Shown in pieces: positions 7,193 through 57,895 of a DNA stretch of 64,000 nucleotides. The notes under the pieces are model-generated. The model was not told where the DNA came from. It did no database searches and worked only from the letters and a program-made list of their open reading frames with translations. The first letter of the stretch is position 1, and each line of letters opens with the position of its first letter. The DNA is from Schistocephalus solidus (Eukaryota > Platyhelminthes > Cestoda > Diphyllobothriidea > Diphyllobothriidae): positions 1-64,000 of the forward strand of contig WEDG01004562.1 in assembly GCA_017591395.1 (NCBI GenBank), given 5' to 3'. A program made the translations under genes and the position numbers.

Positions 7193-8632
7193 TTAAACAA
7201 CCGGCTTCATAAGGCTGTGAGCCCTGTCCAAGGACAAGTTTGGTTGCTCGCCTTTGCACCTTTTCGAGGATGGTGAGGTCCTTTGCCGCCCAGGGCCTCC
7301 CAGCTTAAATAGCGGACTACAACTGCGGCAGCTGAAAACGCTCGTTTGACGAAGTAGAGAATCGACATCGCTGACTTCGCTAACTTGGCGCAATGTAGGT
7401 AGGATTTAATCGAGGGCGTGATTCAGACTCCCAGGTCCTTTTGGGCATCCACTTCTTTGAGTGGAGTGCCATTCAGACTGTAAACCGTACGATTCGAAAG
7501 ATTGCTTTTCCCGACTCGTATGATGTCGCACTTGCTCTCATTAAACGGCAAGAGCCAGTGATTTGACCATTTCTGGAAACAAGTTAAGTTTGCCTGCAAG
7601 TTCTCTTCGTCAGCCGCAGTTTTAATGACACGCCAAAGTTTGAGATCATCGGCAAACATGGCAATATCGCAGTCCAGTTCGTTGGCACAATTGCTGATGC
7701 ATACAATGAACAAAATAGGGTCGAGAACAGAGCCTTGGGGAACACCACTCTCAACCTCAACATTGACAGACTGCTTGTCGCTGATATGGACCGTTTGTGA
7801 GCGGCCAATTAGGAAGTTTTCTATCCATGTCAGAAGTCTACCTTTTACTCCTAAGTGGTTGAGTTTCTAAAGAAGGGGTGATGCGGCACGCTATCGAAAG
7901 CCTTTTGAAGTCGATCTAGACTGCGTGCACCGTATTTTTCTTATCAATTGCCTCAGTCCAACGTTCTAAACAGTAGATCAAATATGTTACGCAGGACCTA
8001 CCTCTACGGAAACCATGCTGGACCTCGGAAAGCAGATGGTTATGTTCTAGGAACTGCATTAGTTGTTGCTTAATTATTTTTTCCATGATTTTGCAGTAAA
8101 CTGAAGTAAGGCTGACGGGTCGATAATTGTTTGCTGAGACCCGACTTCCACCCTTATAAAGCGGCGTAATCCATGCGGGATTCCAATCCACTGGTAGACC
8201 TCCGGTCTCGAAGGATGTTTGGAAAATCGTAGAGAGTGGTTTTGCCAACTCTCCCGCGAGCTCTTTCAAGATCTTGGCAGGTACTTCATCGGGACCCGCT
8301 GACTTAGATTCCTTTAACCCCAAAAGTTCCTCGAGGACAACAGTCTCGGTGAATTGAACAGTCTTGACTATTGTTTTCACTTCGGAGACATCGGCAGGGT
8401 AATCGCATTTCGATTAATTTGTGAAAACTGACCGGAAAAATTCAGAAAGATGATCAGCCTTCGCACCGTCTTCAATAAGTTCTATGCCCTCGGCGGTCCT
8501 CAGCAGGGGTATCGGATCCTTGCTCCATGTATTCTGCCTGAGGTAACCGTGAAACAGTTTCGGGTTCATGGTAGTCCGGATACCCTCGTAAGTTCATCGA
8601 GCACAGCAGGCAGGCCAAACCAAGACAAAATC
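7193..8632 (-). mobile_element. CR1/jockey-like LINE, RT region, decayed
   Basis: Minus-strand reverse transcriptase. The open part (8,380 down to 7,916) carries SAGPDEVPAKILKELA, NNYRPVSLTSVYCKIMEKII and QHGFRRGRSCVTYL, the conserved fingers/palm blocks of APE-type LINEs; the IDFK and FADDLKLW blocks follow near 7,910 and 7,640 after frame changes, then SLNGTPLKEVDAQKDLGV near 7,430. Several frame breaks make it non-functional. It is the same family as the LINE at 44.6-47.3 kb (for example SAGPDEVPAKILKELA versus SPGPDVIPAKLLKELA) but clearly diverged. Its right end meets a Penelope-like fragment of opposite strand at about 8,632. Confidence 0.85.
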
Positions 8633-9660
8633 CAGTGACAGAACAGCCAAAAGTCTGGCATGCGCTGCCATATATTGACGGCGTCTCTGAGGCAGTTTCC
8701 CGCCTCCTCAGGCTGTTAGGGGATCGGAATCGCCCATCGACCGGATGCAACCGTTTGAAATCTTTTCATGAGAGAGAAACACCCCTTTCACGAGGTGAGA
8801 CGTCAAACGTCATCCACAGGATCCAATGTGACTCTTGTGAAGTTAACTACGTCGGAGATCCAGGGAAGCGTTTGCAGACCCGTGTTACCGGACACGTGCG
8901 GGCAGTGAGGAGAATGGATCCATTGTTCCTGGTGGCGGAACACTGTGCAAACTCTGGGCACACGTTTGCCTTCTAGAACGCCAAAATCTAGAATCCAGGA
9001 AATGACCGCTTAACCAGGGAAACAGGAGAAGCCTGTCACACGGAGACTACGTCAATCAACTGTTGTGTCGCCCTTCCGGCAGCCTACCAAGCCCTCCAGG
9101 CGCAGCTCAGCAAAAGTAAGAGCAAATACGAAACAAGCCAAACGTGAATACAACCACGGGTGAACCTAGGATGGACATGCACGTAACCACGCCACAATCC
9201 AGGGCCAACGAATGCGTCATCATCAATAATTTCGCATCAACCACAATCCCGACAGACAAAGAGACATGCAGTCAGAAGGACACAAACCAGGAATAGCAAC
9301 CCAGGTCACCAATGAAGGTCACTGCGGACGCGGATGAGGGCTGCAAACGGTCAAACGCCACCCCTCGACGAGAGACATGCCAACTGATAGCAATTACCCT
9401 CCTCCCCCCTCCTTCACCCTGGTGACTCCAGAGATGCTTCACGTGTGTATGCGGGCGATGAACGCCAAAGCCAATTACGGACTCCCCCTACCTGTCCTCC
9501 CTACTGTTAATGTAAACCCGTACAATCAACACTGTGTTAAAAAATGGCTGTCACCCCCTATAAATACTGTGCGACGCAGTACGATACTCACCTTCGACGA
9601 TGGAAGCTTGCATGCTTTTGAAACGTCAGGAAAATAAATCTATAGTCTCTGAAGTCAATC
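8633..9660 (+). mobile_element. Penelope-like element fragment, GIY-YIG end
   Basis: The open frame 8,635-8,976 encodes the linker and GIY-YIG endonuclease end of a Penelope-like element: VIHRIQCDSCEVNYVGDPGK then RLQTRVTGHVRAVRR and HCANSGHTF, matching the layout of the better copy at 13.5 kb. Beyond the stop the translation continues degenerately to LPAAYQALQAQLS (about 9,080). The 3' part (to about 9,660) has the GACGATGG / GAAACGTC pair common at 3' ends of these elements. RT is absent, so it is 5'-truncated. It is a different subfamily from the 12.2-13.9 kb element. Confidence 0.7.
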
Positions 9661-9699: not shown

Positions 9700-9906
9700 C
9701 TTAGTAGCGCCTGGGGTTGGGTATGGCTGGCTGATGACGGCTAATAATCCAGAAATGGTCATTCCAGTCTCCTTTGTCTTTGTCGGTCATGTTATTCGGC
9801 CTATATCCTTAGCTGCCTTGCGGCTACTGGCGGGGCTCGAGTTGTAGCCCCAAGGCACAACGGGACGAGTGAGTCCTGTAACCGATCGGTGAGCGCCAAA
9901 CTACCA
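9700..9906 (+). mobile_element. S2 SINE copy with hammerhead core
   Basis: Member of a tRNA-headed SINE family (S2) found about ten times here. This copy lacks a clear tRNA head but keeps the body: TATGGCTGG, the hammerhead, CTTTGTCTTTGTCGG, a GGCGGGGCT block and the end CCGATCGGTGAGCG. It runs directly into a (TA)n tract. Confidence 0.75.
9725..9769 (+). ncRNA. Hammerhead ribozyme candidate in S2 (type I)
   Basis: CTGATGA at 9,731-9,737; stem II GGCT/(A)TCC with AATA loop; GAAA at 9,752-9,755; stem III AT/AT closed by GGTC (9,755-9,762); cleavage would follow T9,763; stem I GGCTGG (9,725-9,730) pairs with CCAGTC (9,764-9,769), one G-U. One stem II base differs from the consensus (TCC for GCC), so this copy may be weakened. 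Fold only; no activity shown. Confidence 0.6.

Positions 9907-9910: not shown

Positions 9911-9954
<44 letters not shown>
9911..9954. repeat. (TA)n microsatellite
   Basis: Uninterrupted TA dinucleotides between an S2 copy and the hammerhead array. Similar tracts recur at 11,044-11,089, 11,257-11,278, 11,620-11,651, 20,463-20,490 and 30,773-30,815, often at repeat ends. Confidence 0.95.
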
Positions 9955-9955
<1 letters not shown>

Positions 9956-10100
9956 CAAGTGCGTAACACTCACTAATGTGGTAAGGATCTCACTCGATCC
10001 CATTTGTCCGCCCGCCAGTTACCTACCGGCGATAAACGAACGTTGTGTCATAGGACACATACCATATATATAGCACAAATATGTTGCTAAGAGTGCAACA

Positions 10101-10158
10101 GGCAAGACGCAGACAGCTGTTTCACGGTCATTACCGATCATCAGTAGCATCATATGCC
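10101..10158 (-). ncRNA. Hammerhead ribozyme candidate, array copy 1
   Basis: Minus strand. Same core as copy 3 (10,513-10,569) with one extra C in the stem I strand before CTGATGA. GAAAC, AGCT loop and GTC are all intact; the cut would fall after the complement of G10,112. Confidence 0.75.
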
Positions 10159-10330
10159 TTTGTGCAGTGAGGGTACATAAACAAACCAAACAAGTGCGTA
10201 ACACTCACTAATGTGGTAAGGATCTCACTCGATCCCATTTGTCCGCCCGCCAGTTACCTACCGGCGATAAACGAACGTTGTGTCATAGGACACATACCAT
10301 ATATATAGCACATATGTTGCTAAGAGTGCA

Positions 10331-10389
10331 GCAAGAAGACGCAGACAGCTGTTTCATGGTCATTACCGATCATCAGTACATCATATGCC
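10331..10389 (-). ncRNA. Hammerhead ribozyme candidate, array copy 2
   Basis: Minus strand. CTGATGA, GAAAC and GTC intact; the proximal stem I pairs GATGTA with TGCGTC. Stem II has one change (ACCAT for ACCGT), and the distal stem I has a small insertion relative to copy 3. Predicted cut after the complement of G10,344, 232 nt from that of copy 1. Confidence 0.7.
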
Positions 10390-10512
10390 TTGTGCAGTGA
10401 GGTACATTAACAAGCCAAACAAGTGCGTAACACTCACTAATGTGGTAAGGATCTCACTCGATCCCATTTGTCCGCCCGCCAGTTACCTACCGGCGATAGG
10501 TACAAGGCACAA

Positions 10513-10569
10513 GGCATATGATGTACTGATGATCGGTAATGACCGTGAAACAGCTGTCTGCGTCTTGCC
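10513..10569 (+). ncRNA. Hammerhead ribozyme candidate, array copy 3 (best)
   Basis: All core elements present. CTGATGA at 10,526-10,532; stem II CGGT/ACCG with AATG loop; GAAA at 10,547-10,550; minimal two-pair stem III (AC/GT) around an AGCT loop; GTC at 10,556-10,558 with the predicted cut after C10,558. Stem I is built from GATGTA (10,520-10,525) with TGCGTC (10,559-10,564), six pairs including two G-U, an internal loop TAT opposite T, and GGCA (10,513-10,516) with TGCC (10,566-10,569). The internal loop facing a stem II tetraloop is the usual place of tertiary contact in natural type I hammerheads. Confidence 0.85.
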
Positions 10570-10742
10570 TGTTGCACTCTTAGCAACATATTTGTGCTAT
10601 ATATATGGTATGTGTCCTATGACATAACGTTCGTTTATCGCCGGTAGGTAACTGGCGGGTGGACAAATGACCGAGTGAGATCCTACCACATTAGGAGTAG
10701 TGATGGCACAACCCGCTCGCCGAAATGAGCATATATGATGTA

Positions 10743-10790
10743 CTGATGATCGGCAGACCCTGACTGTTGCGCTGCTGTCGCACATCTTTA
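10743..10790 (+). ncRNA. Decayed hammerhead, array copy 4
   Basis: CTGATGA (10,743-10,749) and the start of stem II (TCGG) remain, but the GAAAC segment reads TGACTG and the stem I strand is altered, so it should be inactive. Confidence 0.55.
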
Positions 10791-10955
10791 GCAAACATAT
10801 TTGATATATATATGGTGGTCGTGTCCCATGACATAACGTTCGTTTATCGCCGGTAGGTAACTGGCGGGCGGACAAATGGGATCGAGTGAGATCCTTACCA
10901 CATTAGGTAAGTGTAACGCACTTGTTTGGCTTGTTTATGTACCCTCACCGCACAA

Positions 10956-11014
10956 GGCATATGGTGTACTGATGATCGGTAATGACCGTAAAAACAGCTG
11001 TTCTGCGTCTTGCC
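10956..11014 (+). ncRNA. Decayed hammerhead, array copy 5
   Basis: CTGATGA (10,969-10,975), stem II CGGT/ACCG and stem I GGCA/TGCC are kept, but GAAAC has become AAAAAC and GTC has become GTTC. Core mutations imply loss of activity. Confidence 0.65.
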
Positions 11015-11048
11015 TGGTTGCACCCCAGCAACATATTTGTGTTATATA

Positions 11049-11278: not shown

Positions 11279-11600
11279 GATAGTGTGGGGTCTCACCGAT
11301 CTGCTTTAAGGAACATGCATGTTCCGTTGTGCCCTGGAGCTCAGACTAGAGCCCCGCAGGCGGTCGCATAGCGACGTGTAGCATATGATTGAATGGAACC
11401 GACAAAGACAAGGGAGACCGGAATGGCCATTTCTGGCTTATTAGCCGTCATCAGCCAGTCATACCCAATCCCAAAGTGGCACACCTGGGATTCGAACCCG
11501 CGACCTTTGATATTTCAGTCAAACGCTCTACCATTGAGCCACGGGCTCGTTGTTTTGTCGTTTGTGATCGGGAATATGATGATAGTGTGGGGCTCACCGA
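11279..11600 (-). mobile_element. S2 SINE, most complete copy, tRNA-Phe-like head
   Basis: Read on the minus strand: a leader, then a tRNA-like head at 11,546-11,479 with A box TGGCTCAATGG, anticodon region GACTGAAATATC (close to a tRNA-Phe with GAA anticodon) and B box GGTTCGAATCC; then the hammerhead, CCTTGTCTTTGTCGG, a GTCGCTATGCGACCGCC hairpin block, GGGCACAACGGAACATGCA and the end GATCGGTGAG. The A and B boxes imply Pol III transcription. The tail of another minus-strand copy begins at about 11,577, so copies lie in tandem. Confidence 0.85.
11416..11460 (-). ncRNA. Hammerhead ribozyme candidate in S2 (type I)
   Basis: Minus strand. Stem I GACTGG (complement of 11,455-11,460) with CCGGTC (complement of 11,416-11,421); CTGATGA (complement of 11,448-11,454); stem II GGCT/AGCC with AATA loop; GAAA (complement of 11,430-11,433); self-complementary ATGGCCAT stem III; H17 is T. 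Compared with the 9.7-kb copy, stem I differs at two places and both changes keep pairing. Confidence 0.7.
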
Positions 11601-11959: not shown

Positions 11960-12212
11960 CCAAACTTCTGCCCGACAGGTCGCGAGTTCAAGCCTCGGGC
12001 GCCGCAGCGCCTGGGTTTGGGTATGGCTGGCTGATGACGGCTAATAAGCCAGAGATGGCCATTCCAGTATCGCTTGTCTTTGTCAGTAAAATCATTCTGC
12101 CTATATCACTTGCTGATCTGTGGCTGCTGGCGGGGCTCTAGAGTTAACCCCAAGGCACAACAGGGACGAGTGAGTCCTGTAACCGATCGGTGAGCACCCA
12201 GCTACCATTGTT
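11960..12212 (+). mobile_element. S2 SINE copy, hammerhead mutated
   Basis: B-box-like GAGTTCAAGCC at about 11,986, then TATGGCTGG, CTGATGA (12,031-12,037), GGCT/AGCC, but GAAA has become GAGA; the body and the CCGATCGGTGAGC end follow. The hammerhead should be inactive. Confidence 0.75.
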
Positions 12213-13854: not shown

Positions 13855-14190
13855 GCTCACGTGAGATTCCTAAACGTCCTGCCAGCAACTGCAAGATGGC
13901 TAATGATATAGGCAGAATAACATGACCGACAAAGACGAGGGAGAATGGAATGGCCATTTCTGGCTTATTAGTCGGCATCAGCCAGCCATACGCAACTCCG
14001 CCCGTTGGGCACCAGAGGCTCGAACAGGTGACCTGTTGGTTAGAATTTGAAAACTCAACCCACTGTGCCACGAGCTCGTTGTCTTGTCGGGTTTGATCGG
14101 AAATATTAACTGTGGTAAGTAGACGCTCACCGAATGTTTAAAGGACTCACTCTTCCCGTTATGTCTTGGGGTTCACTCTCGAGCCACGGC
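13855..14190 (-). mobile_element. S2 SINE copy, hammerhead mutated
   Basis: Minus strand: tRNA-like head (about 14,076-13,998, B-box-like CTGTTCGAGCC), TATGGCTGG, then CTGATGC in place of CTGATGA, stem II, GAAATGGCCATT and the GTCTTTGTCGG body. The A9-to-C change in the core should abolish cleavage. Confidence 0.7.
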
Positions 14191-15254: not shown

Positions 15255-15420
15255 GAATAACATGACAGACAAAGACAAGGGAGACTGGAATGATCATTTC
15301 TGGCCTAGTAGTCATCATTATCAGCCAGCCATACCCAAACCCAGATGCTGCGGCGCCCGAGGCTCACACTCACGACCTGTTGTTTATAAGTCCCACGCTC
15401 TAATTCACCTGTTCTACCAG
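15255..15420 (-). mobile_element. S2 SINE copy, hammerhead broken by insertion
   Basis: Minus strand. GGCTGG stem I and CCAGTC partner kept, but CTGATAATGATGAC shows a small insertion/duplication in the core. Stem III reads ATGATCAT instead of ATGGCCAT, a paired change that keeps it self-complementary. Confidence 0.7.
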
Positions 15421-20254: not shown

Positions 20255-20462
20255 AGTGTTTTGCTCACCGATCTGTTTAAGAAACATGTATGTTCCGTTG
20301 TGCCCTGGAGCTCAGACAAGAGCCTTCGCAGGCGGTCGCATAGCGACATGTAGCCTCTGTTGATAAAGTGGAACCGACAAAGACAAGGAAGACCGGAATG
20401 GCCATTTCTGGCTTATTAGCCGTCATCAGCCAGTCATATCCAATGCCAAGTTTGGCACACCT
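20255..20462 (-). mobile_element. S2 SINE copy in tetraspanin A intron 3
   Basis: Minus strand, nearly the same as the 11.3-11.6 kb copy from TTGGCATTGG through the hammerhead, GTCTTTGTCGG, the GTCGCTATGCGACC block and the GATCGGTGAG end. The tRNA head is replaced by a (TA)n tract (20,463-20,490). Confidence 0.8.
20391..20435 (-). ncRNA. Hammerhead ribozyme candidate in S2 (type I)
   Basis: Minus strand, core bases as in the 11,416-11,460 copy: stem I GACTGG/CCGGTC, CTGATGA (complement of 20,423-20,429), GGCT/AGCC stem II, GAAA (complement of 20,405-20,408), ATGGCCAT stem III, T at the cut site. It is antisense to tetraspanin A, so it would act only in a minus-strand transcript. Confidence 0.7.
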
Positions 20463-27109: not shown

Positions 27110-28300
27110 AATATTTATTGTTTTTACTACAGCAAAGTGAAATAGTTAAAATCTGCCAGCAAGTGTGCTACACAGAGCAGATTGGACGCATGCTTGGTTC
27201 GCGCATACACGAACATAAGCTGGCAGATGGGGTGACAGATTATCACGACAGTTCGACCGTCGTAGTCCGACGATGTCCACCATATGCTCCATGGGAAAGT
27301 GGAGCAGGGACGGTGACTTGCGCGTGATTTAGTTTAAAGTGATAGTAGACTTGCGCTGCATCTACCGCACTCTCTCCTCCTCCCCCCACCTGGAGCCCGG
27401 GGTGTCAAGACAGAGTCAAGAAGACCGGAGGCAGGAGAGGACGCAGGTGGCTGGCACGGCCGGGTCCCCTAAGTCCGAGCCGCCCCTATGCGTGCCACCA
27501 CACCTCCCATGTTCGGCATTTGTTATGGCAGCGCAACCCGAATAACGCCTGCTGTGCCCTAATGTGGCCCCCCGTGTTGGTCCAACGCATCTACCACGTG
27601 GCCCGTTTAGGGGGCAAACACACACGACGACAGTTCGACCGTCGTAGTCCGACGATGTCCACCGTATGCTCCATGGAAGGGGGGAGCAGGGACGGTGACT
27701 TGCGCGTGAATTAGTTTTAAGTGATAGTAGCCTTGCGCTGCAGCTACCGCACGCTCTCCTCCTCCCCCACCTGAGCCCGGTGTCAAGACAGAGTCAAGAA
27801 GACCGGAGGCGGGAGAGGACGCAGGTGGCTGGCGCGGCTGGGTCACCTAAGTCCAAGCCGCCCCTATGCGTGCCACCACACCTCCCATGTTCGGCATTTG
27901 TTATGGGAGCGCAACCCGAATAACGCCTGCCGTGCCCTAATGTGGCCCCTGTGTTGGTCCAACGCATCTACCACGTGGCCCGTTTAGGGGGCACGACAGA
28001 CACGGCAGACAGACACACGCGGCTACCCACACCTACGAACCGGGTCAGAAATTCAACTTTGCAGCCACGAAGGTAATCGCCCACGCCAGAAACAAGACAA
28101 GCTGAGAATTGATTGAAGCCTGGGCCTCCGATGAGAACTCATTCAATCGATTTATCGATCTGGCACCGACGTACGGAGCCCTACACAGGCACCTCTGGAT
28201 GGGCCTTACTGGTTTTTGGTTGGCCCCTTCCCCTTTAACCACTACTTGATTTTTTGCTGTTTTTATCTCTGTCGCTGGACTCCAATAAGAGCTTGAAAGT
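27110..28300 (+). mobile_element. Penelope-like fragment split by repeat X
   Basis: Left part (to about 27,243): CYTEQIGRMLGSRIHEHKLAD, a GIY-YIG piece. Right part (from about 28,025): GQKFNFAATKVIAHAR then NSFNRFIDLAP and a 3' region with TTTATCTCTGTCGCTGGACT. Set against the copy at 19.8-20.2 kb (HEHELSV..., FNFAAMKVIAHAR, SINRFIDLAP) the two parts are almost contiguous, so about 750-780 bp of X sequence was inserted. Confidence 0.75.
27251..27991 (+). repeat. Repeat X, tandem dimer
   Basis: Two units starting GTTCGACCGTCGTAGTCCGA at 27,251 and 27,633 (period 382 bp), each ending near CCCGTTTAGGGGGC. Flanks share CACGACA (27,244-27,250 and 27,992-27,998), a possible 7-bp target duplication. 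Units include CACCTGAGCCCGG and GCGCAACCCGAATAACGCC blocks. No coding capacity. Confidence 0.75.
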
Positions 28301-29306: not shown

Positions 29307-29453
29307 AAAGTCTAGGGGAGGATTTTGGCAGATTTGAATAAGTCCTTTGACCAACTTGTGAAAAACTCGGTGGCCTCTGTGGGATTCGAACCCACGCCAG
29401 CAAGGGGAAGGCTTTAGTACATCCAACGCTCTAGCCAACTGAGCTACGAGGCC
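29307..29453 (-). mobile_element. S1 SINE, inverted half of a head-to-head pair
   Basis: tRNA-like head on the minus strand (29,453-29,371) beginning GGCCTCGTAGCTCAGTTGGC, with B box GGTTCGAATCC and closing AGAGGCC; the tail runs to about 29,307. The anticodon arm does not fold well, so I call it SINE, not tRNA. Confidence 0.75.
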
Positions 29454-29515: not shown

Positions 29516-29632
29516 GGCCTCGTAGCTCAGTTGGCTTGAGCATTGGATATACTAAAGCCTTCCCCTTGCTGGCGTGGGTTCGAATCCCACAGAGGCCACC
29601 GAGGTTTTCACAAGTGGGTCAAACGAATTAAA
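29516..29632 (+). mobile_element. S1 SINE, sense half of the pair
   Basis: Head 29,516-29,597: same A box, CCTTCCCCTTGCTGGCG and B box GGTTCGAATCC as its partner, from which it differs at only a few bases; tail CACAAGTGGGTCAAACGAAT. A 62-bp spacer separates the pair. Confidence 0.75.
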
Positions 29633-32317: not shown

Positions 32318-35300
32318 TGCCCACGTTTTTCCGAAAACAATGTGATCTCTCAAACCTGAATTGACCTGATTTTCGTGAAAACAAAACAAAATTTTCCATT
32401 CTCCGAAGGGATATATTCTACATTTTTCCAGCTTATATTGATGTTAATTCATAGCACTGCGCACAAAAACAAAATGATGTGATCAGCAGCTTTTAATAAT
32501 GTAGGAAAATTCCTGGATAGAAAGAAGTGTTGGATTATGCCCCATGTAGCCCCGATATCTCATTAATAAACCGATCTGAAGTGAGTTCTTCATTATCGAC
32601 CAGCTTTTTGTGCATCAATTTAATACAACAAATATAACTAATAACTTAAAATGACTGCCCTGCTACAACCCCAAATTCCGATAAAGACATTTCAGGAGTT
32701 TAGTAATCTATTTTATATATTTATAAATGGGCATATAAAGGGTCAGTATTACCATCTCAGTCACAATACATTACGTGTAAAATAAGAGAACTCCAGGAAA
32801 GGAGACTCGAACTGTCACCATATTAAATGTATATTTTAATGTAAATCCACTAACCCTTATTTATTAATATTTATTCTGGCTGCGTGAATGGAAGAAGATA
32901 TTTCGCTGAAAATTTCGGAATGCTACTTTCACAAATACCTGTGCGTCCCTGTCAGAGCCCACAATTAAGGCTTGCTGGCAGTAGTCTGCCTAAAACTGAG
33001 CGAACCAATCTGCTGTCTGCAGCACTGTTCTAGTTAGCAGGTATCCAAGCCTGAACCTTTTATTGATTTAATGCGCGGGACTTGACGTCGGCTTATCGCC
33101 TGTTGTGTGTAGTTGCCAACGTCGCAACGCCCACGCGCGGTTCGACTGAGCCGCCTCTGGCCCAATGACGTGAAGGCTCGTGGGTTGGGGAAAAATTCAC
33201 ACTGTGGTAAGACTATGGTTTTTTAAATGCCAATTTCGCGGTTAAGCTGCACCTGCATAGTGCACACTTGCGGTCACCTCATTCAAATGAAAAACATTGG
33301 GTCATCTGTTTTCATCCCAGAAGTTTTAATGTAATTCGCAGATGACACCGTTGACAAGCTTTCATTTTCTGTGTATCGAGGGCTCTTTTTCTTCAGTAAG
33401 ATTTCTGTGTGGTTTTTTAGAGGTTGAGGACTACACTTAGTTACCGGGTATGCTTTAAATGCCAGCGTTTTTGAGAGACTGCACTTCTGCAATAACTTTC
33501 TTTCAGAACTTTTAAAATTAGATATTTCTTATGGGTGTTTGTGGAGGAACTTTATCAGTTCGATTTTAGAAACGGATGAATCCACCAGAAAACCCCTGTA
33601 GAACGTTGATGGAGTTACTGTTTAGCCGAATCTCTCGCTGATGCCTCAGAAAGTGGCAAATGTTTGGGTTTAAGCTGATAACTATGCAGCAAATATGGTG
33701 ACTCCTTCTATATGTATTAAGTTATCACCACCAGTTGGAGTCTGCGGAATATTGCGCGGTTAGTCCAGCATATATCATATTTTTTGACAAAGCGCTAAAA
33801 AAAAGTTCCTGTATCAAAAGGATTTAATATAATTTTGCACACTAATTCCTTAGGGAATAAAACAAGGCTCAACTGTAAATCCTCGTGGTCCACCTACGAT
33901 AAGAAGTGTCCGAAGTGTTCTCTGTGCTATGAGATTCGTCAACACCACCTATCACTCACTAATTTACAACCAACAAATTATCAGAAACTGGATTCCAGTG
34001 ACAAAAAGCATGTGTGATAGGAAAATATGCAGTCACATGGATATTGCCTCCCCCGATGTATCCAACTAACAGTCGAAAAGTGGGTATTTTGCCTTGGATA
34101 AGAAATTGATTCTAAAGCCCATGCAAACGAAATCCAAACGAACAGTTATCATGCTATGGTTGCTAGTGAAGCAGAACGCCGTTCACGGTATAGCATTTTT
34201 TAAGGACGGAGCAGGCTCTCTGAATCCATACCATAGCATCTTTATACATTTGAATTCAATGCGTGATAAGCGTTTCCAATTACGATGGCGTTGTCTTGTG
34301 CATTCGCTTGAGCTGTAGTTTGTAAGTTGCAGTCGAACCAAGATCTTATGATAAATACCATTTCTAATGGTTTTATTACTGATTTACAATATCGGTAGTC
34401 AGCCTCAAAGTTGTCACCAATGCAATAGCTGCTGCGTGTATAGAAAGTTTGTTTGCGATTAGGTTAACAAGTGAAACGTGGGCATGTAAAAACCACAATT
34501 TTTAACTCTTTATGCTTGCAGTATACTTACATACACTTCCAGATCGTGTGTCATGGAAGAATAATGCCTTCCGAATGTCTGTTATGGCTGTGAGGACCCA
34601 GAAGTGCCCCACCTCTCCACGTGCAAACGAGAGGTAATAGGATACCATATGGATCACGTAATTAGACAGAACTTCAATTTTTAAGCCTAGCCAAAGTTTT
34701 TACCGTCTCTACTTTACCTCCTTCAGAAGACTTTTCATGTTTGGACCAAATACTCTCACGCAACTTATGTCATGTCTTGTGGACAATTACGTCGTTGAAC
34801 AATGGATTAATTCCATATCTGGGGAGTTTGAGCTATGCCGCTTTTGATTAGCGAATAATTCGAGTCGAGTTGTGAACTGTTCTCATAGTTATAAAACTGA
34901 TGCAAAATAACAAGAATGACAGGGGAGACGAAAATGACCTTTTCGGGGATATAAGTTGCCAACAGCAGGCCGTAGGCAACCCTGAGACTAGTGTCTGGCT
35001 GATGACGCTTATGAGCCGGAAACGAACATTCCAAACTCCCTTGTCTTTGCCGGCAAGCATACTCTGTCTATGATACTAGCCGCTGTGTGGCGGCTGGCGG
35101 GGCTTGAGAGTAAGCCCCAAGGCACCGCGGAATGAGTGAATTCCGTTAGCGATCATTAAGTGTTCGTTAACGAACGTCAGAAAAGTGCTCGTAGCCAGCA
35201 ATGCAGCCAACCTCGTCCGCGTATATGGTGTTCATAATTCAGCCCTTCTATGGACCATTTCGAGTTCCGTCCGAAATGGACAAGAATTCCAAAATCACCC

Positions 35301-38026: not shown

Positions 38027-41000
38027 ACTCGGGGTGTAGGGGTACAAGTTAGGGGTAGCACCACACATATAGCATTTGGTCACTCCATTTGTCTCGTACA
38101 GGTGGTGAATGCTCCTGTGGCTGCCTCTTACTGGTTCTTCCCAGCGGCCTCACCCCGGGCAAACGTCATAACCGGTGGGCTATGCCAGGTGATCGTCTCC
38201 GGTGTTGTGTGTGCCTCAACACCCGGTATGTCTGACTGCCGAAATTCCCAACTCCACCCTCTCAAAAAGTCATACGGTGGGGGCGACAGCAACCCCGTAG
38301 GCGGCCCAGGCCAACTCGGGTCGTTTTATCACTAAAACAAAACCGTGACCCATAGTGGAGTTCGGCAGCCGTCTGGGATGTCCGAGCAGCCCTATTTAGG
38401 GACTGCACTGCTTGCCTCCTCGTGGAGGAAGGGGCTAGAAAAGGTGCCCTAAACAAATGCTGGTTATCACGTATTCTGCAGGCGACTGCGGCTCGCAGAT
38501 CACAAAATACGCGGTCGTAAAACTCAAACAAACAACAATACCCCACGTCCCCATCCCCCTTGCCATACCCTCCAGGCTGCTCGGGTAAGTCCACTCACAC
38601 TAGCATCCTGAAATGTTCGTTCCCTTTTAGACGATCCTAGGAGCAACCGGCCAGAACGGAGGACGGCGCTAGTCGATCGGGAACTGGCGCGCTACAAGGT
38701 GGACATTGCTGCTCTTAGCGAGACCCGAGTCTCTGAGCAGGGTCAGCTGGAGGAGTTGGGTGCCGGCTGCACCTTCTTCTGGAGTGGCCGGCCAAAGGCA
38801 GAGCGACGCTGGTATCACATTTGCCATCCAAAAAGACATCGTGGGACCTCTGCTGCAGGGTATAAATGATCGCCTGATGAGCCTCCACCTGCCTCTTCGG
38901 GGAGATTAGTTCGCCACCATCATCAGCGCCTACGCTCCTCCATTGACGAGCTCGGATGCGGCGAAGGACAAATTCTTCGAGAACCTGCATGCCCTGCTGG
39001 CGACTGTGTCGAAGGTGGACAAGTAAATTGTCCTTAGTGACTTCAACGCCCGCGTCGGGACAGACCACGCTGCCTGGCAGGGAGTGCTGGGTCCCCACGG
39101 TCTCAGTAGCTGTAACGATAACGGCCTCCTTCTTCTGTGCACGTGTGCGGAACAGCGTCTCCTGCTGACCAACACCTTCTTCCACCTTCCGACACGAGAG
39201 AAGGCCACGTGGATGCACTCTCGGTCGCGGCGCTGGTATCTACTGGACTATGTTCTCGTCCGGAGGCGAGATTGACAGGACGTGCTGGTAACCAAGGCGA
39301 TCCGCGATGCCGATGGTTGGACAGATCACCGCTTTGTCATCTCCCAGATGAGGCTCCGACTGCAACCCCCGACGAAGGCCCCAAGGTAAGCTACCACCTT
39401 GCTCAATTTTTTGACTTCAGCAACCAAATAACCGATAAACTGGAGGACCTGCATGCTCCAGATGATAATGCTACCGTGGAGGCACGATGGTGTCAATTGT
39501 GAAATGTCATCCAGTCCACCATCCTCGAAGTCCTCGGACGCGCACGCCGTCAACACCAGGACTGGTTTGATGACAATGACGCCGACATCAGCAACTTACT
39601 CGCGGAGAAGAATGGACTACACAAAGCCTACGCGGACCTTCGGACTGACGCCACCAAAGCAGTCTTCGTCAGAAGCCGGCGCCTTGTACAGCAACGGCTG
39701 CGGGAGATGCAGGATGCCTGGATGATCCGAAAGGCTTAAAAAATCCAGGGGTATGCGGACCGCAATGAGATTAAAACTTTTTCAAAGCCATCAAGGCCAT
39801 CTTCGGCCCGTTTATCAAGGAGACCGCACCGCTGCTCAGCTCTGACGGCACAACACTGCTAACAGAGAAATCGCAAATTCTGAAGCGCTGGGCCGAGCAC
39901 TTCAGAAGTGTCCTTAATTGCTCATCAGCCATCTCCGATGCTGCCATTGACCGGCTCCCTCAAATTGACACGAACAATGACCTGGATCTGCCGCCTTCCC
40001 TACCAGAAACCATCCGGGCCGTGCAGCAGATTTCCAGCGGTAAAGCACCGGGATCCACCGCAATCCCACCAGAAGACTACAAGCATGGTGGGCCCCGGAT
40101 AATATCCGAACTCACAGCACTCTTCCAGGATATGTGGCACCAAGGTAAAGTTCCTCAGGATTTGAAAGACGCGACCATCGTCCATCTCTACAAACGGAAG
40201 GCAAACCGGCAACTCTGTGATAATCACAGAGGCATCTCGTTGCTCAACATCGCTGGGAAGATCTTCACACGTATCCTTCTTAATCGTCTGAACGGTCACC
40301 TAGAGCAAGGCCTGCTCCCTGAAAGCCAATGTGGCTTCCGCCGACACCGCGGATTAACCGATATGATCTTTGCCGCCCGCCAGCTACAAGAGAAGCGCCA
40401 GGAGATGTGAACTCACCTATACACTACCCTCGTGAATCTGACGAAAGCCTTTGACACGGTGAATCGTGACGGACTGTGGAAAGTCATGCAGAAATTTGGC
40501 TGTCCTGAGCGGTTCACGCACATGGTGCGTCAGCTTCATGACGGGATGACGGCGCGCGTCACTGACAACGTGACGGTATCCGGAGCATTCGCAGTGACGG
40601 AGTGAAGCAGGGCTGCGTATTGGCTCCCACCCTGTTCAGTCTCATGTTCTTGGCTATGCTGATGGACGCCTATCGTGATGAGCAGCCTGGGATCCGCATC
40701 ACCTACAGAACTGACGGGCACCTTCTCAACAGTCGGCGTATGCAGGCGTCAACGCACGTGTCTACGAATTGCTCTATGAATTGCTCTTCGCGGACGACTG
40801 CGCCCTTAAAACCGTGGCGGAGTAGGACACGCAATGAGTATAGACCTCTTCGCCGCCGGCTGCGCCGATTTCGGATTAACAATCAGTACAGCCAAAACGG
40901 TTGTCATGCACCAGCGCGGAATACAATGCTCCCCGAATCAATGTCAACGGTGCTCAACTCCAAAACGTGGAAACCTTCGCTTGTCTAGGAAGCACGTTGT

Positions 41001-42290
41001 CGCGCAACACGAGAATCGATGACGAGGTTGCCCAACGGATCTCCAAAGCTAGTCAGGCCTTCGGCCGGCTACAGGCCTCCGTGTGGAATCGCCACGGTAC
41101 TCACCTGAACACCAAACTGAAGATGTACAAGGCCGTCGTCTTGTCGACACTCCTTTACGGAGCGGAAACCTGGACCGTCTACTCGAACCAAGCCAGGAAG
41201 CTGAATCACTTTCATCTCAGCTGCCTCCGCAGAATACTGAAACTGAGATGGCAAGACAGGATCCCGGACACGGAAGTCCTGGAGCGGACCGGAATCCTCA
41301 GCATCCATGCCATGCTGAGGCAAGTGCAACTGCGATGGAGCGGTCACCTGGTAAGAATGGACGACGAGCGACTACCCAAACGACTTTTCTACGGAGATGT
41401 CGCTACGGGTGCTCGCCGACAGGAAGGTCAAAAAAGACGCTACAAGGACACTTTGAAGAAATCGCTGAAGCAAATGCAAATGAACCTGGTGACCTGGAAG
41501 GACCTCACCCAGGATAGACTGGCATTGAGTAGATCCGTGAAGACTGGCTCAGCAATCTATGAGGCCAACCGGATCGTTAAAAGAGCGGCACGAAAGTCAC
41601 CAGTGCCCCGGACCAACATCGTCGATGCCCAGGCCCTGTCAACAGGCCCGCGCTGTCAATGCAGGAATTGGCCTGGTCGGAAATCTTCGGACGCAATGCA
41701 CGAACGATCCGACAATTCCAAATTTTACGTCAAATTCTGCCAACATTCCTTTAGACTCCCGGAGCAACAACACACAGCAGTGGTCGCCGCCTCCACTTCC
41801 CTCACTGTCCTCGCGCATTCACTCATCGCATGGGCCTATTTGGTCACATGCGCATCCATGACAGCGGAATTCACCACAATGCCGACAACACCGATACACC
41901 ATGCACACCCTCCGCCCCTGCCATTCCTAATGCCACTGCCATCCCCACTACCTCAAATAACATCCCCCCAGCCTCTACCGATTTCTCCTGCCCACACTGC
42001 GCCCGCAACTTCAACTCTCGCATCGGCCTGGTCAGTCACCTGCGAATCCATCGCACGGACGCTGGTGAACCAGTGTCTGGGGCTCTGACATACAGTCGAA
42101 GCCCCGTCCTTTACTGCCCTCACTGCTCCCGCACATTTACACACCGCATGGGCCTATTAGGACGCATTCGCCTCCACGACAACCTGCGGTAAACCACCGG
42201 AGGCTTCGTCACATAAGCGCCCGACATCTACACTAATACATAGACAGCACCCTCACAATAATCATATTGCACCTAATAAAATCACGGTTT
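38027..42290 (+). mobile_element. LINE with endonuclease, RT and C-terminal C2H2 fingers
   Basis: Nearly full-length non-LTR retrotransposon with frame breaks. APE-type endonuclease (about 38,640-39,390): [73 protein letters not shown] (about 39,740-40,900): SSGKAPGSTAIPPEDYKHGG, NHRGISLLNIAGKIFTRILL, ESQCGFRRHRGLTDMIFAAR, TKAFDTVNRDGLW, LLFADDCAL (active site). C-terminal region in one long frame (40,901-41,700): [34 protein letters not shown]. Then, after a frame change at about 41,750, three C2H2 fingers (about 41,796-41,866, 41,985-42,055, 42,112-42,182) of the form CPHC-x3-F-x4-GL-x2-H-x2-IH. The 3' UTR ends near AATAAAATCACG (42,283). Inserted into duplication copy 2. Confidence 0.9.
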
Positions 42291-43036: not shown

Positions 43037-44556
43037 CGCGGTTAGTCCAGCTTATATAATATTTTTGGCAAAGCAATAAAACAAATCTGTATCAAAGGAT
43101 TTAATATAATTTTGCATATTAATTCCTAAGGGAATTAAACAAGGCTCAACTGTAAATCCTTTCACTCGCTAATTTATAACCAAAAAAATTATCAGAAACT
43201 TATTTCGTGTGACAATTAACAATTGTGGTAGAAAGAAATGCAGTCACATGGATATTGCATCCCCCGATATATCCAAATAACAGTCGAAAAGTGGGTATTT
43301 TGCCTTGGATAAGAAATTGATTCTAAAGCCCATGCAAACGAAATCCAAACGAACAGTTATCATGCTATGGTTGCTAGTGAAGCAGAACGCCGTTCACGGT
43401 ATAGCATTTTTTAAGGACGGAGCTGGTTCTCTGAATCCATACCATAGCATCTTTATACATTTGAATTCAATGCGTGATAAGCGTTTCCAATTACGATGGC
43501 GTTGTCTTGTGCGTTCGCTTAAGCTGTAGTTTGTAAGTTGAAGTCGAAACAAGGGCGTATTTTAAATAACATTTCAAATGGTTTTATTACTGATTTAATA
43601 TAGGTTGCACGCTATCGGTAGTCAGCCTCGAAGTCGTAACTGATGCAATAGCTGCTGCGTGTATAGAAAGTTTGTTTGCGATTAGGTTAACAAGTGAAAC
43701 GTGGGCATGTAAAAACCACAATTTGTAACTCTATGTGCTTGCAGTATACTTACATGCACTTCCAGATCGTGTGTCATGGAAGAATAATGCCGTCCAAATG
43801 TCTGTTATGGCTGTGAGGACCCAGAATTGCCCCACCCCTCCGCGTGCAAACTAGAGGTAATACCATACCATATGGATCACATAATTAGACCGAACTTCAA
43901 TTTTTAAGCCTAGCCAAAGTTTTTACCGTCTCTACTATACCTCCTTCAAAAGACCTTTCATGCCTGGACAAAATATTCTCACGCAACTACTTTCATATCT
44001 TGTGGACAATCACGTCGTTCAACAATGGATTATTTCCATGTCTGGGGAGTTTGAGCTATGCCGCTTTTGATTAGCGAATAATTCGAGTCGAGTTGTGAAC
44101 TGTTCTCATAGTTATAAAACTGACGCAAAATAACAAGAATGACAGGGGAGACGGAAATGACCTTTTCGGGGATATAAGTTGCCAACAGCAGGCCGTAGGC
44201 AACCCTGAGACTAGTGTCTGGCTGATGACGCCTCTGAGCCGGAAACGAACATTCCAAACTCCCTTGTCTTTGCCGGCAAGCATACTCTGTCTATGATACT
44301 AGCCGCTGTGTGGCGGCTGGCGGGGCTTGAGAGTGAGCCCCAAAGCACAACGGAATGAGTGAATTCCGTTAGCGATCAGTAAGTGTTTGTCAATTAAAGT
44401 AAGAAAAGTGCGTAGCCAGCAATGCAGCCAACCTCGTCCGCGTAGATGGTGTTCATAATTCAGCCCTTCGATGGACCATTTCGAGTTCCGTCCGAAATGG
44501 ACAAGAATTTCAAAATCCCCCTTTGCGTTCGAGCTGAACTAGTAGCAGTCAACCAC
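43037..44556 (+). repeat. 3.7-kb duplication, copy 2, segment b
   Basis: Resumes at CGCGGTTAGTCCAG, matching 33,755 to about 35,335, with a deletion of about 50 bp near 43,160. Contains the second copy of the old S2 SINE (44,133-44,385). Ends at TAGCAGTCAACCAC (44,543-44,556), the target-site duplication of the next LINE. Confidence 0.85.
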
Positions 44557-47341
44557 GCGTTTCGAATTTGGGTTCAAATTTCTGACCTCTAAGTAATTTA
44601 TTTTCTTCAATAATTTGGCCAACTGTCCACTTTATTAGCTTTCCGGTATCAGAAACTGGATTCCAATCAACGATAACTTCGTCCTCACAACTTTTCAACG
44701 GACTTTCGCAGAACTCGGACTTTCATCGAGTCCGCTCCCCTCGTGTCGATTGTTTGAGAACCGAGACAAGCAACTTCTTCAAAGGCTGAGTTACTCTTCT
44801 AAACTTATTCGTTGAATGCATCATACGTCGAACATACTTGATAAAGATCTCTCTTCCGAATTCATCTACCAATATACCAATGTCCAAAGCCTACTCCCTA
44901 AATCAGATGAGCTTAATTTATACGTGTTCCAAACTTCACCAAATATAATCTTCATAACTTAAACGTGGCTGACCACGAAGGTGGACGATCGTGAAGTTGC
45001 CATCCCCGGTTTTCAGTTATTCAGAAAAGATAGAGCAGGACGTCATGGTGGGGGTGTGCTGACTTATGTCAGATATGGCCTGCTTGTGTCAGAAAAAAAG
45101 GAAAAGCTCGCGTGCGAAACTGAAGCCATCTGGCTCACCATCAGAACGCCGGGGTCTCAAGCACTTGAGATCCTAACGGTCTACCGACCACCGAGGAACG
45201 ATCCACAAGCAGACAGTATACTGATAGATTAATTAGAATCGTTTGCTAGTCGATCCGAAGTTATGATTATGGGCGACTTTAACGCTCCAAATATCGATCG
45301 GAATCTGAGCTCGGCACCAGGCTCAGAATTAAACTTCGATCGCCGCCTCCTAGAAGCTATACACAAACGCTTCTTAACTCAACACGTCCTGTCTCCGACC
45401 AGAATACGCGAGGAGCAACAAGCTAATTGTTTGAACCTTGCATTGACAAAGGCGCCTGGCAGCGTAGATGTTGTGCACTGTCTATCCCTACTGGGCAAAA
45501 GTGATCACGTAGTCCTACAATGGGAATATTCACTCTTCTCTGTCCCCGATCGAAGCATCACAGTCAAACGCAACCTATGACGTGGAGACTTTACACAAAT
45601 GAAAATTGATGTGCGCCATTTAGACTGGAATTAAACATTCACCGGGTGTATTCTAGAGGATTTGTTGCAATTTAAGGCCGTATTACAGGGACTTATCACC
45701 AACTACTGTCCTAATTCGAAAAAAAGGTCACCAACAGGCCCTAGTGGCTAACGTCCACGCTGAAGAGTGAAGTAAACTGCAAGCGAAAGCTGTGGCAAAC
45801 TTATCTAAGGGAAAAGACCGTCGAATCGCTGACGAAGTACAAGACGCAGAGGAACATGATAAAAGGCCTGGTTTATAAAGCCCGCCAAAGTTTAGAGAGT
45901 AACTTTGTAAACCGTGCAGCAAAAAACTCGAAGCTCTGCTACAACTACATTAGGCAGTGCACTCGAAATAAAGACCCCATCCCTTTGTTGAAAACGGATG
46001 AAGGCGTCGAACTTTGCAAGGACGAGGAAAAGGCTGAGCATCTATCTGAGTTCTTTCAATCGGTTTTTACGAGGGAAGCCAATGTAACCGCTGATAACTA
46101 TAGTGTGGAAGAGATCCCGACAATTGACTCAGTGGTCATAACAGAACCTATTGTTCTGTAAGAACTACTGAAGCTGGACGAAACCAAATCGCCAGGTCCT
46201 GATGTAATACCGGCAAAGTTGTTGAAGGAGTTGGCCAAAGAGTTGGCAGAACCTTTGTGTCTTCTCTTCCAAGTTTCCCTCGCTGCAGGCAGATTGCCAC
46301 CCGAGTGGAAGACCGCGTGGATTTCCCCGATACATAAAAGTGGTAGCCGGGCTTCCGAAAATAACTACAGGCCGGTAAGTCTCACCTCCATATGTTGCGA
46401 GATTATGGAGCTATTCATCAAACGTGAACTGATGGAGTTTCTGGAGCGGCATCATCTTCTCTCTGACGCGCAGCACGGATTCCGCAGAGGGAGGTCCTGT
46501 TTAACTTATTTGCCCTACTGTCTGGAACGATGGACCCGAGCGGTCGATGAAGGAAAGGTAGTGCACGAAGTCTACATAGACTTCAAGAAGGCCTTTGATA
46601 GCGTGCCTCACCAACGTCTCCCTACACAAACTCAACCGTATTGGGGTAAGGGGCAAGCTTTTGAAGTGGATCGAAAACTTCTTGATTGGGTGATCTCAGA
46701 TTGTCCGTCTTGGCGATCAACAATAAGCGGAGGTGGCGGTTGAGATTGGGGTTCCTCAGGGCTCCGTCCTTGGCCCTATCCTCTTCCTTATATATATTTA
46801 TGACTGCATAACTGGCTTGGACTGTGACACCGCCATGTTTGCTGACGATATAAAGCTTTGGATAGTCATATACAACGCACCTGATGAAGAAAGTCTACAG
46901 ACAAACTTGCATCGACTCGAGGAATGGTCGCAAAACTGGCTCCTCCCATTCAATGCTACCAAGTGAAATATTCTGTGATTCGGCAGAACCAGCTCCGGGC
47001 ACCAGAGAATTAACTATCTGGACGGCACACCACTACCAGAGGTAGAGGCTCAGAAAGATCTATGATTATGGATCACGCCCACACTGAACCCATCGTTCCA
47101 TTGCTCAAAAGTAGACAAATCTGCCATGTCAAGCTTGTATCTAATTAAGCGAGCGTTTGCAAAGTTCGACAAAGAGTGCTTTTATAAGGTCTTCGGGATA
47201 TTCGTGCTACCACAATTGGAATTTGCCATACAAGCCTGGAGACCGTGGTCTGTCAAAGACCACAACACCCTTGAGAAGGTCTAAAGATGTGCAACCAAGC
47301 CTGTTCAAGGTCAAAGCTGTCTGCCTTACGAGCCCAACTTA
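44557..47341 (+). mobile_element. CR1/jockey-like LINE with 14-bp target duplication
   Basis: Endonuclease part: LFRKDRAGRHGGGVLTYVR (about 45,020), EILTVYRPPRNDP, IMGDFNAPNIDRN (45,266), SDHVVLQWEYS (45,499). Linker: YNYIRQCTRNKDPIPLL. RT: SPGPDVIPAKLLKELAKELA, NNYRPVSLTSICCEIMELFI, QHGFRRGRSCLTYLPYCLER, YIDFKKAFDSVPHQRL, GVPQGSVLGPILFLIYI, MFADDIKLW (46,833). Frames change at least at 45,236, 45,580-45,730, 46,160, 46,630 and 46,970, so it is dead. It ends at LPYEPNL, inside the ORF, with no 3' UTR. TAGCAGTCAACCAC flanks it at 44,543-44,556 and 47,342-47,355; copy 1 of the duplication has the empty site (TAGCATCCAACCAC at about 35,322). Confidence 0.9.
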
Positions 47342-57631: not shown

Positions 57632-57895
57632 GATCGGTTAGAGCATTGGACTGCTAACCAACAGGTCACGGGTTAGGGCCTCGGATGGGGTACCTCGTGG
57701 GGATTGGTATGGCTGGTTTTTGACGGCTAATGAACCAGAAAATGCCATTCCAGTTCCGCTTATCTTTGCCAACCGTTTCAATCTGCCCATACTACTTACC
57801 TCTTTGCAGCTGTTAGCTGGGCTCCAGAGTGAGCCCCAAGGGCAGAACGAGGTGATTGAGTCCCCGCAACCGATCGGTGAGCGTTAATCAACGAG
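57632..57895 (+). mobile_element. S2 SINE, diverged copy with head
   Basis: GGTTAGAGCATTGGACTGCT, AACCAACAGGTCACGGGTTA, then TATGGCTGG, a broken core (TTTTTGACGGCTAATGAACC), GAAAATGCCATTCCAGTT, the GGGCTCCAGAGTGAGCCCCA hairpin and CCGATCGGTGAGCG. CTGATGA is lost. A further tRNA-like head fragment (GGTCGTGGGTTCAAGCCTCC) follows at 57,960-57,985. Confidence 0.7.

What the first reader, a model, noticed from the sequence alone, without database searches (positions are those of the whole stretch)
9955..11030. Satellite-like array with a hammerhead ribozyme in every unit
Units of about 232 nt each carry a type I hammerhead with CTGATGA, stem II, GAAAC, minimal stem III, GTC and a two-part stem I. 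Copies 1-3 keep all core bases. Two tandem minus-strand cut sites are exactly one unit apart, so a read-through transcript could release a 232-nt monomer able to circularise, as known for schistosome satellites, retrozymes and Penelope-like element repeats. I cannot tie this unit to a coding element in the window.
Basis: partly seen in the sequence, partly recalled or inferred. Interest (0 to 1): 0.88.

Follow-up and report, generated by a model that had tools for sequence, protein, structure and literature searches.

The report
Ribozyme repeats with paired Penelope-like ends
A 232-letter DNA repeat carrying a predicted self-cutting RNA (a hammerhead ribozyme) sits in this genome, likely a tapeworm's, in arrays whose two outer ends follow the same fixed pattern as Penelope mobile elements in the same genome, which would mean that a Penelope enzyme likely inserts these repeats, an open question for such mobile RNAs.

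Summary
The array (9955-11042) is head to head between two (TA)n tracts: two minus-strand ribozyme copies, then three plus-strand copies. Three cores are intact, one is mutated, one is lost. No Rfam hammerhead model matches, but a covariance model made only from another hammerhead repeat (family B) finds four of the five (best 40.4 bits); its sequence-only version finds none. The exact 33-nt core occurs 1,140 times in the genome, control 0. By sequence it is an animal-type retrozyme.

The new part is how arrays end. Of 66 mapped 3' ends, 42 run straight into (TA)n, and 41 of these lie at two unit positions; 5' ends scatter. Opposite-strand end pairs within 5 kb are mixed and outward in 11 of 12 cases. 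A Penelope family in the same genome shows the same rule, one short and one long end, in 3 of 3 pairs. I infer Penelope-type insertion that extends both DNA strands. Ribozyme activity, RNA circles and the enzyme are untested, and most arrays are mixtures of units, which speaks against a single monomer circle as the usual template.

The parts
9911..9954 (.). (TA)22 tract, left outer edge of the insertion
9955..10498 (-). minus-strand half array, 2.35 units; its sense 3' end is the left edge, unit position 158, a short form of the 164-type end, running into (TA)n
10098..10157 (-). hammerhead m1, intact core, one extra C in stem I; predicted cut after 10112
   Evidence: 32.5 bits with the family-B model
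10336..10386 (-). hammerhead m2, intact core, one C.A mismatch in stem II; predicted cut after 10344
   Evidence: 27.5 bits
10112..10343 (-). the 232-nt monomer that would be released between the two minus-strand cuts (predicted)
10499..10506 (.). 8-nt head-to-head junction
10507..11042 (+). plus-strand half array, decayed in its middle; right end of the 48 type (unit position 48), running into the TA tract
10509..10579 (+). hammerhead p1, intact core; predicted cut after 10558
   Evidence: 40.4 bits
10733..10788 (+). hammerhead p2, lost
   Evidence: 2.0 bits
10957..11016 (+). hammerhead p3, GAAA mutated
   Evidence: 24.1 bits
11043..11089 (.). (TA)23.5 tract, right outer edge
8575..9384 (+). 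Penelope-like GIY-YIG remnant upstream of the array
11401..11476 (-). hammerhead motif of family B, used with other B copies to build the test model
11480..11548 (-). tRNA-like head of the same family-B copy
   Evidence: Rfam tRNA 28.2 bits, gathering 29

Best explanation
The array is one insertion of a retrozyme, a non-coding 232-nt repeat with a predicted type I hammerhead ribozyme, which a Penelope-type reverse transcriptase likely copied from RNA into a (TA)n tract, where it would extend both cut DNA strands and so give two arrays that meet head to head. Steps, all inferred: transcripts of arrays fold hammerheads whose stem III (one pair and a palindromic AGCU loop) favours two ribozymes pairing, so cleavage would work best in dimers; multi-unit RNA, cut or uncut, and for some arrays a circle, is bound by the enzyme; copying starts at one of two fixed unit positions (at the TATATATAT tract 40-48 nt after the cut site, or at about 164); in two-ended insertions one DNA strand starts at each; the two products stop at irregular 5' points and join with little or no overlap. 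Shown directly by sequence: the repeat and its cores, the head-to-head order, the two fixed 3' ends on (TA)n, the one-of-each pattern, and the same pattern in a Penelope family of the same genome. Not shown: the enzyme, ribozyme activity, any RNA.
For: Ribozyme: a model from 16 family-B copies finds p1, m1, m2, p3 at 40.4, 32.5, 27.5, 24.1 bits (E 1.7e-7 to 1.5e-3 over 64 kb; E-values rough), the same alignment without structure finds none at E <= 10. On 4 A and 6 B rows 89.3% of 159 cells pair, slid controls 30-48%. Copies: 33-nt core 625 + 515 = 1,140, reversed control 0. Ends: 42 of 66 3' ends run straight into (TA)n, 22 at unit 46-50, 19 at 155-168, 1 elsewhere; densest 5-nt window 23 for 3' ends (uniform maximum 9) and 7 of 65 for 5' ends (uniform maximum 10). 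Junction strings genome-wide: 156 and 91, controls 0. Order: 18 minus-plus against 1 plus-minus neighbours. Pairs: 11 of 12 opposite-strand pairs outward and mixed, 45% mixed expected. Penelope: (TA)8+ within 600 nt downstream of 15 of 21 pieces, upstream of 2 of 23, LINE pieces 1 of 11 and 1 of 9; one Penelope 3' end 97 times on (TA)n; another family with 7 short and 12 long ends on (TA)n, 3 of 3 same-contig pairs outward and mixed. Literature: a PLE protein extends both strands, prefers AT-rich DNA and starts at two internal RNA sites (PMC11167929); PLEs are head to head with an optional tail on one end (PMC3846280).
Against: No Rfam hammerhead match. The fold of p1 alone pairs the core CUG with CAG of stem III. 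The best predicted A dimer is not the textbook double hammerhead, unlike B's. In one search the number of pairs changing on both sides (8 of 16) is reached by 126 of 500 shuffles, and within B covariation does not exceed shuffles. The circle fold is only slightly more stable than shuffles (z -1.45). Units within an array differ about as much as units shuffled among loci (3.91 against 3.83), against one monomer circle as template. Of the 18 head-to-head cases, read by their outer ends are mixed, 1 (L030) has two ends of the 164 type and 6 cannot be classed. The loci were picked from the top of one search and hold arrays on (TA)n, which inflates the Penelope count; in the window itself 1 of 4 Penelope pieces has (TA)8+ within 600 nt downstream. 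Published work found that ribozyme mutants of a PLE did not change insertion in vitro, so cleavage may not matter for insertion. Target duplications cannot be seen inside (TA)n.
Confidence: 0.72

Rival explanations
1. Inherited tails. The (TA)n is the element's own tail: RNA reads from an array into its flanking TA tract and ends in (UA)n, and any TA-primed enzyme (LINE or Penelope) copies it. The two 3' junctions are two inherited lineages rather than two start sites.
For: Most 164-type ends have exactly the same junction although the unit has no TA tract there. Tailed short elements copied by other elements' enzymes are well known (recalled). Mixed unit variants in arrays fit copying of array transcripts.
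Against: It does not predict that two-ended insertions carry one end of each type (11 of 12), nor that a Penelope family shows the same rule (3 of 3). LINE pieces show no TA preference downstream (1 of 11).
Confidence: 0.17
2. Ordinary satellite DNA. Arrays grew and spread by unequal exchange and duplication; the ribozyme is a relic without a role.
For: Tandem arrays with mixed variants; a four-unit pattern repeated in one array (L027); decayed copies in the window.
Against: More than a hundred dispersed arrays that end at two fixed positions on (TA)n, and 5' ends that vary; DNA exchange alone would not place outer ends so.
Confidence: 0.07
3. A fold-back DNA transposon with TA targets.
For: Inverted halves flanked by TA.
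Against: The two outer ends differ in sequence and the inner junction varies between insertions; single-ended arrays are common.
Confidence: 0.02

Closest known systems
Metazoan non-LTR retrozymes (Cervera and de la Pena 2020, PMC7229834, parts 1-4 of 6 seen)
   Same: Tandem repeats of 150-450 bp with a type I hammerhead in the unit, GC under 50% (45% here), dispersed dimers to long arrays, Penelope elements in the same genome; platyhelminths are named there among hosts.
   Different: Sequence-specific family with no listed match; head-to-head arrays with two fixed ends on (TA)n are not described in the parts seen. Circles and activity shown there, untested here.
Amphibian satellite hammerheads (newt, axolotl HHR_Amex1 and Amex2, as described in PMC7229834)
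   Same: One extra pair in stem III capped by a palindromic tetraloop (as Amex1); U.U mismatch at the base of stem II (as Amex2); there these act best as dimers.
   Different: Different sequence and unit size (232 against about 330-350 nt); a flatworm, by inference.
Penelope-like elements (PMC11167929 parts 1-2 of 4; PMC3846280 passages)
   Same: Head-to-head insertions, partial tandems, two alternative 3' ends with one end longer than the other, AT-rich target, hammerhead close to the 3' end.
   Different: The 232-nt unit codes for nothing; the two 3' ends lie 116 nt apart in the unit, against about 30 nt in the Penelope family.
Schistosome hammerhead repeats (S-mansoni Sm-alpha, S-japonicum Sj-alpha, W-elements)
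   Same: Flatworm repeats with hammerheads; Sj-alpha is called SINE-like in a reference title, as family B is here.
   Different: No sequence of theirs was compared; likeness is recalled, apart from passages of PMC8490949.

Membership tests
type I hammerhead ribozyme | conserved core CUGAUGA..GAAA..UH with stems I, II and III, stem I open | tested here: met
   p1, m1, m2; not p2, and p3 has a mutated GAAA
type I hammerhead ribozyme | match to a curated hammerhead model | tested here: not met
   no Rfam hammerhead hit in the array; family B has a sub-threshold HH9 match, 17.2 bits against 52
type I hammerhead ribozyme | self-cleavage | not testable with these tools
   needs transcription and a gel
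metazoan non-LTR retrozyme | tandem repeats of 150-450 bp with a type I hammerhead, from dimers up | tested here: met
   159 complete units, 115 of 232 nt; array lengths 0.3 to 37.4 units
metazoan non-LTR retrozyme | GC below 50%, no coding frame | tested here: met
   GC 45%; no stop-to-stop frame of 120 aa or more in the array
metazoan non-LTR retrozyme | no LTR, primer-binding site or polypurine tract | not tested
   no dedicated search was made
metazoan non-LTR retrozyme | expressed as linear and circular unit-length RNA | not testable with these tools
   no RNA data here
Penelope-type insertion | AT-rich target | tested here: met
   42 of 66 3' ends directly on (TA)n
Penelope-type insertion | two alternative 3' ends, one of each in head-to-head copies | tested here: met
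   11 of 12 pairs; exception L030 with two 164-type ends
Penelope-type insertion | target site duplication | tested here: inconclusive
   targets are (TA)n, where a duplication cannot be recognised
Penelope-like element itself | frame with reverse transcriptase and GIY-YIG domains inside the element | tested here: not met
   the unit codes for nothing of 120 aa or more; it is proposed as a user of the enzyme, not a member

The most novel reading that the evidence does not exclude
Retrozymes are parasites of Penelope elements: they carry a hammerhead-plus-start-site module that the Penelope enzyme reads, and the enzyme, working as a pair on one RNA, extends one cut DNA strand from each of two fixed start sites, so that every two-ended insertion becomes a head-to-head array with one start of each kind. 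Two unrelated retrozyme families (A, and the tRNA-headed B) and the Penelope elements themselves obey this one grammar.
Probability: 0.55. Interest if true: 0.82.

Novelty: new variant of a known kind. Interest (0 to 1): 0.68.

Why it matters
Which enzyme moves animal retrozymes is given as open in the papers seen: Penelope elements are called a strong candidate (PMC7229834), and the repeats are said to show no motif that reveals the partner (PMC7761336). Here the insertion ends carry such a signature, in a genome with over a thousand exact ribozyme cores and many Penelope ends, so the link can be tested directly with one enzyme, one RNA and a (TA)n target. The rule of one start per strand is also a clue to how Penelope enzymes deal with both strands. 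And it shows a large hammerhead family that Rfam's models do not see.

Tried and rejected
Rfam hammerhead models: no match in the array at any threshold tried. One monomer circle as the template of all arrays: not supported (within-locus 3.91, permuted mean 3.83; per-locus means 3.86 within and 4.97 between). Ends made by the ribozyme: 1 of 66 3' ends lies within 4 nt of the cut and it is not on (TA)n; 2 of 65 5' ends lie within 3 nt. A genome-wide control for junctions at the cut was asked for many times and never answered. Covariation inside family B: not above shuffles. The unit's 25-mer in viral contigs: absent. Pfam did not name the Penelope pieces; the protein search did.

Limits of counts. 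One search used the first 100 of 156 type-48 places and 51 of 91 type-164 places (contigs up to C3568). In one search a text rule filed several true junctions as 'other' (among them L015 +, L047 +, L048 - and the window's right end); the position counts are the ones to use. One search counted family-B spacings on both strands because its site is nearly palindromic, so its 27 spacings and its majority sequence were faulty; redid this with true strands and replaces it. In one search, 28 of 72 B copies were dropped for a broken core. In one search and later, units with more than 25 differences were left out.

Full report
Setting. The window lies in a 603.7-Mb assembly of 8,019 contigs. Its Penelope-type protein piece is most like proteins of Spirometra (64%) and Schistocephalus (62%), so the source is likely a diphyllobothriidean tapeworm; this is inferred from one repeat-borne protein. 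The array spans 9955-11042 between (TA)22 and (TA)23.5. It is head to head: 2.35 units on the minus strand (9955-10498), 8 nt, then plus-strand units from 10507. Identity to the family majority is 98.7, 97.8, 96.4, 87.4 and 91.1% for m1, m2, p1, p2 and p3.

The ribozyme. Cores start at 10144 (-), 10376 (-) and 10526 (+); predicted cuts follow 10112, 10344 and 10558. Stem I has six pairs next to the core, a UAU/U internal loop and an outer helix; stem II has four pairs above a U.U mismatch; stem III has one pair beyond A15.1-U16.1 and a palindromic AGCU loop. Rfam finds no hammerhead here. An independent test came from family B, a second repeat of the window with other helix sequences but the same plan. 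A model from 16 B copies alone finds four of five A copies (40.4, 32.5, 27.5 and 24.1 bits; E 1.7e-7 to 1.5e-3 over 64 kb, rough). The same alignment without structure finds none at E <= 10. On ten rows (4 A, 6 B) 89.3% of 159 cells pair, more than in any of 500 shuffles (mean 72.9%), and slid controls reach 30-48%; 8 of 16 pairs change on both sides, which 126 of 500 shuffles also reach. Within B alone covariation does not exceed shuffles. The fold of p1 alone forms stems I and II but pairs the core CUG with CAG. Two p1 strands are predicted at -50.4 kcal/mol against -44.0 for two single ones, yet not as a textbook double hammerhead; for B they do form it.

How many. The exact 33-nt core of p1 occurs 1,140 times, reversed control 0. 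A similarity search that scored 40 of 592 candidates gave 211 matches, a lower bound. I read 40 sources: the 40 stretches, two of them joined, and the window. They hold 159 complete units between intact cut sites, 115 of exactly 232 nt, mean column identity 99.4%. These loci are the top of one search, nearly all listed on the minus strand, so they lean to young copies.

How arrays end. In unit coordinates (1 = first base after the cut) 66 sense 3' ends and 65 5' ends were mapped. 42 3' ends run straight into (TA)n: 22 at 46-50, 19 at 155-168, 1 elsewhere. The densest 5-nt window holds 23 3' ends (uniform maximum 9) but 7 5' ends (uniform maximum 10). Exact junction strings occur 156 times (48 type) and 91 times (164 type), controls 0. 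Opposite halves next to each other are ordered minus-plus, 3' ends outward, 18 times, and plus-minus once. Among the junction places listed, 12 opposite-strand pairs lie within 5 kb; 11 are outward and mixed, 45% mixed being expected; the twelfth is 2,180 bp long and shares a member with a regular pair. In the fetched loci, read by outer ends, 11 of the 18 head-to-head cases are mixed, 1 (L030) has two 164-type ends, 6 cannot be classed. At 15 of 18 junctions the halves meet within 10 nt, 11 of them with 1-4 nt overlap. The window's array fits the rule: a short form of the 164 type on the left, the 48 type on the right.

Template. Units within a locus differ about as much as units shuffled among loci (3.91 against 3.83), and 67 of 155 substitutions that vary within an array recur in another locus. 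Of 20 arrays with three or more complete units, one is uniform (C191, 37 units); C85 has 11 units of two types; C1484 repeats a four-unit pattern. Multi-unit RNA is thus the likely usual template, with circles likely in a few cases.

The Penelope link. 26 Penelope pieces lie in the sources; (TA)8+ follows within 600 nt in 15 of 21 and precedes in 2 of 23, against 1 of 11 and 1 of 9 for LINE pieces and 20% of random stretches. An array lies within 1.2 kb downstream of 12 and upstream of 4. Because the loci were picked for arrays on (TA)n, these counts are inflated; in the window alone it is 1 of 4. Free of that bias, one Penelope 3' end occurs 97 times exactly on (TA)n in the genome, and a form about 37 nt longer is seen in L010, L020 and L037. 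In L016 a Penelope copy has two inverted 3' flanks 97.9% alike, each with a hammerhead motif, one ending short and one 30 nt longer, both on (TA)n. Genome-wide that short end occurs 7 times and the long one 12 times, controls 0; three contigs hold both within 1.5 kb, and all three pairs are outward and mixed. A PLE protein has been reported to cleave and extend both strands, to prefer AT-rich DNA and to start at two internal RNA sites (PMC11167929, parts 1-2 of 4), and PLEs to be head to head with an optional 31-bp tail on one of the inverted ends (PMC3846280, passages).

Family B. 90 ribozyme copies lie in 25 of the 40 sources; 23 same-strand neighbours are 270-330 nt apart, most often 305 or 302; a tRNA-like head starts at unit position 179. 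19 of 43 3' ends have (TA)4 within 24 nt: 7 at 29-31, 8 at 144-148, 4 elsewhere; the densest 5-nt window holds 9 (uniform maximum 7). Minus-plus neighbours occur 10 times, plus-minus none; three have clear mixed ends (L025, L026, L030), two nearly so (L009, L015), five cannot be classed. Its 5' ends also cluster a little (6 in the densest window, uniform maximum 6). This is a weaker, second case of the same pattern.

Literature. The retrozyme papers seen name Penelope elements as strong candidates (PMC7229834, parts 1-4 of 6) and say that no motif reveals the partner (PMC7761336, passages). Six searches listed no title or abstract that I recognised as describing this pattern; subscription papers are mostly not held, and Luense 2017, Cervera 2014, Forster 1988, Ferbeyre 1998 and Laha 2000 were seen only as references or recalled.

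Verdict. As an element it is a new member of the animal retrozymes with an amphibian-like, likely dimer-prone hammerhead. As an insertion pattern it is a variant not described in what I read, and evidence on an open question.

Noticed in passing
window 9709-9784 (+), 11401-11476 (-), 12009-12084 (+), 13928-14003 (-), 15268-15346 (-), 20376-20451 (-), 57695-57770 (+): Family B: a second hammerhead repeat of about 305 nt with a tRNA-like head and a palindromic AATGGCCATT stem III; two such RNAs are predicted to fold as a textbook double hammerhead. Elsewhere it forms tandem and head-to-head arrays.
   Followed up: partly
window 34980-35051 (+), 44203-44274 (+), 52755-52844: Decayed relatives of family B; two of them keep CTGATGA..GAAAC by sequence.
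   Followed up: no
L028 and L029 (genome contig C191, about 216517-225133): 37 complete retrozyme units without a single substitution between them, what copying round one circle, or very recent spread within the array, would give.
   Followed up: partly
L027 (genome contig C1484): A nine-unit stretch in which a four-unit variant pattern repeats (lag-4 identity 4 of 5, other lags 0), as from a tetramer circle or a block duplication.
   Followed up: no
L016 (genome contig C2781), 1616-2764: A Penelope copy with two inverted, 97.9% alike 3' flanks, intact hammerhead motifs on both sides, one short and one 30-nt longer end on (TA)n, and a retrozyme array in the right-hand TA tract.
   Followed up: yes
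window 29371-29453 (-) and 29516-29598 (+): A pair of tRNA-Ser genes in opposite orientation, 63 nt apart, each with a long variable or intron-like part.
   Followed up: no
window 27245-27993: A 378-nt unit repeated twice, 93% alike.
   Followed up: no
window 7423-8413 (-), 39775-42192 (+), 45745-46743 (+): LINE-type reverse transcriptase pieces; the middle one is followed by a frame with a C2H2 zinc finger.
   Followed up: no
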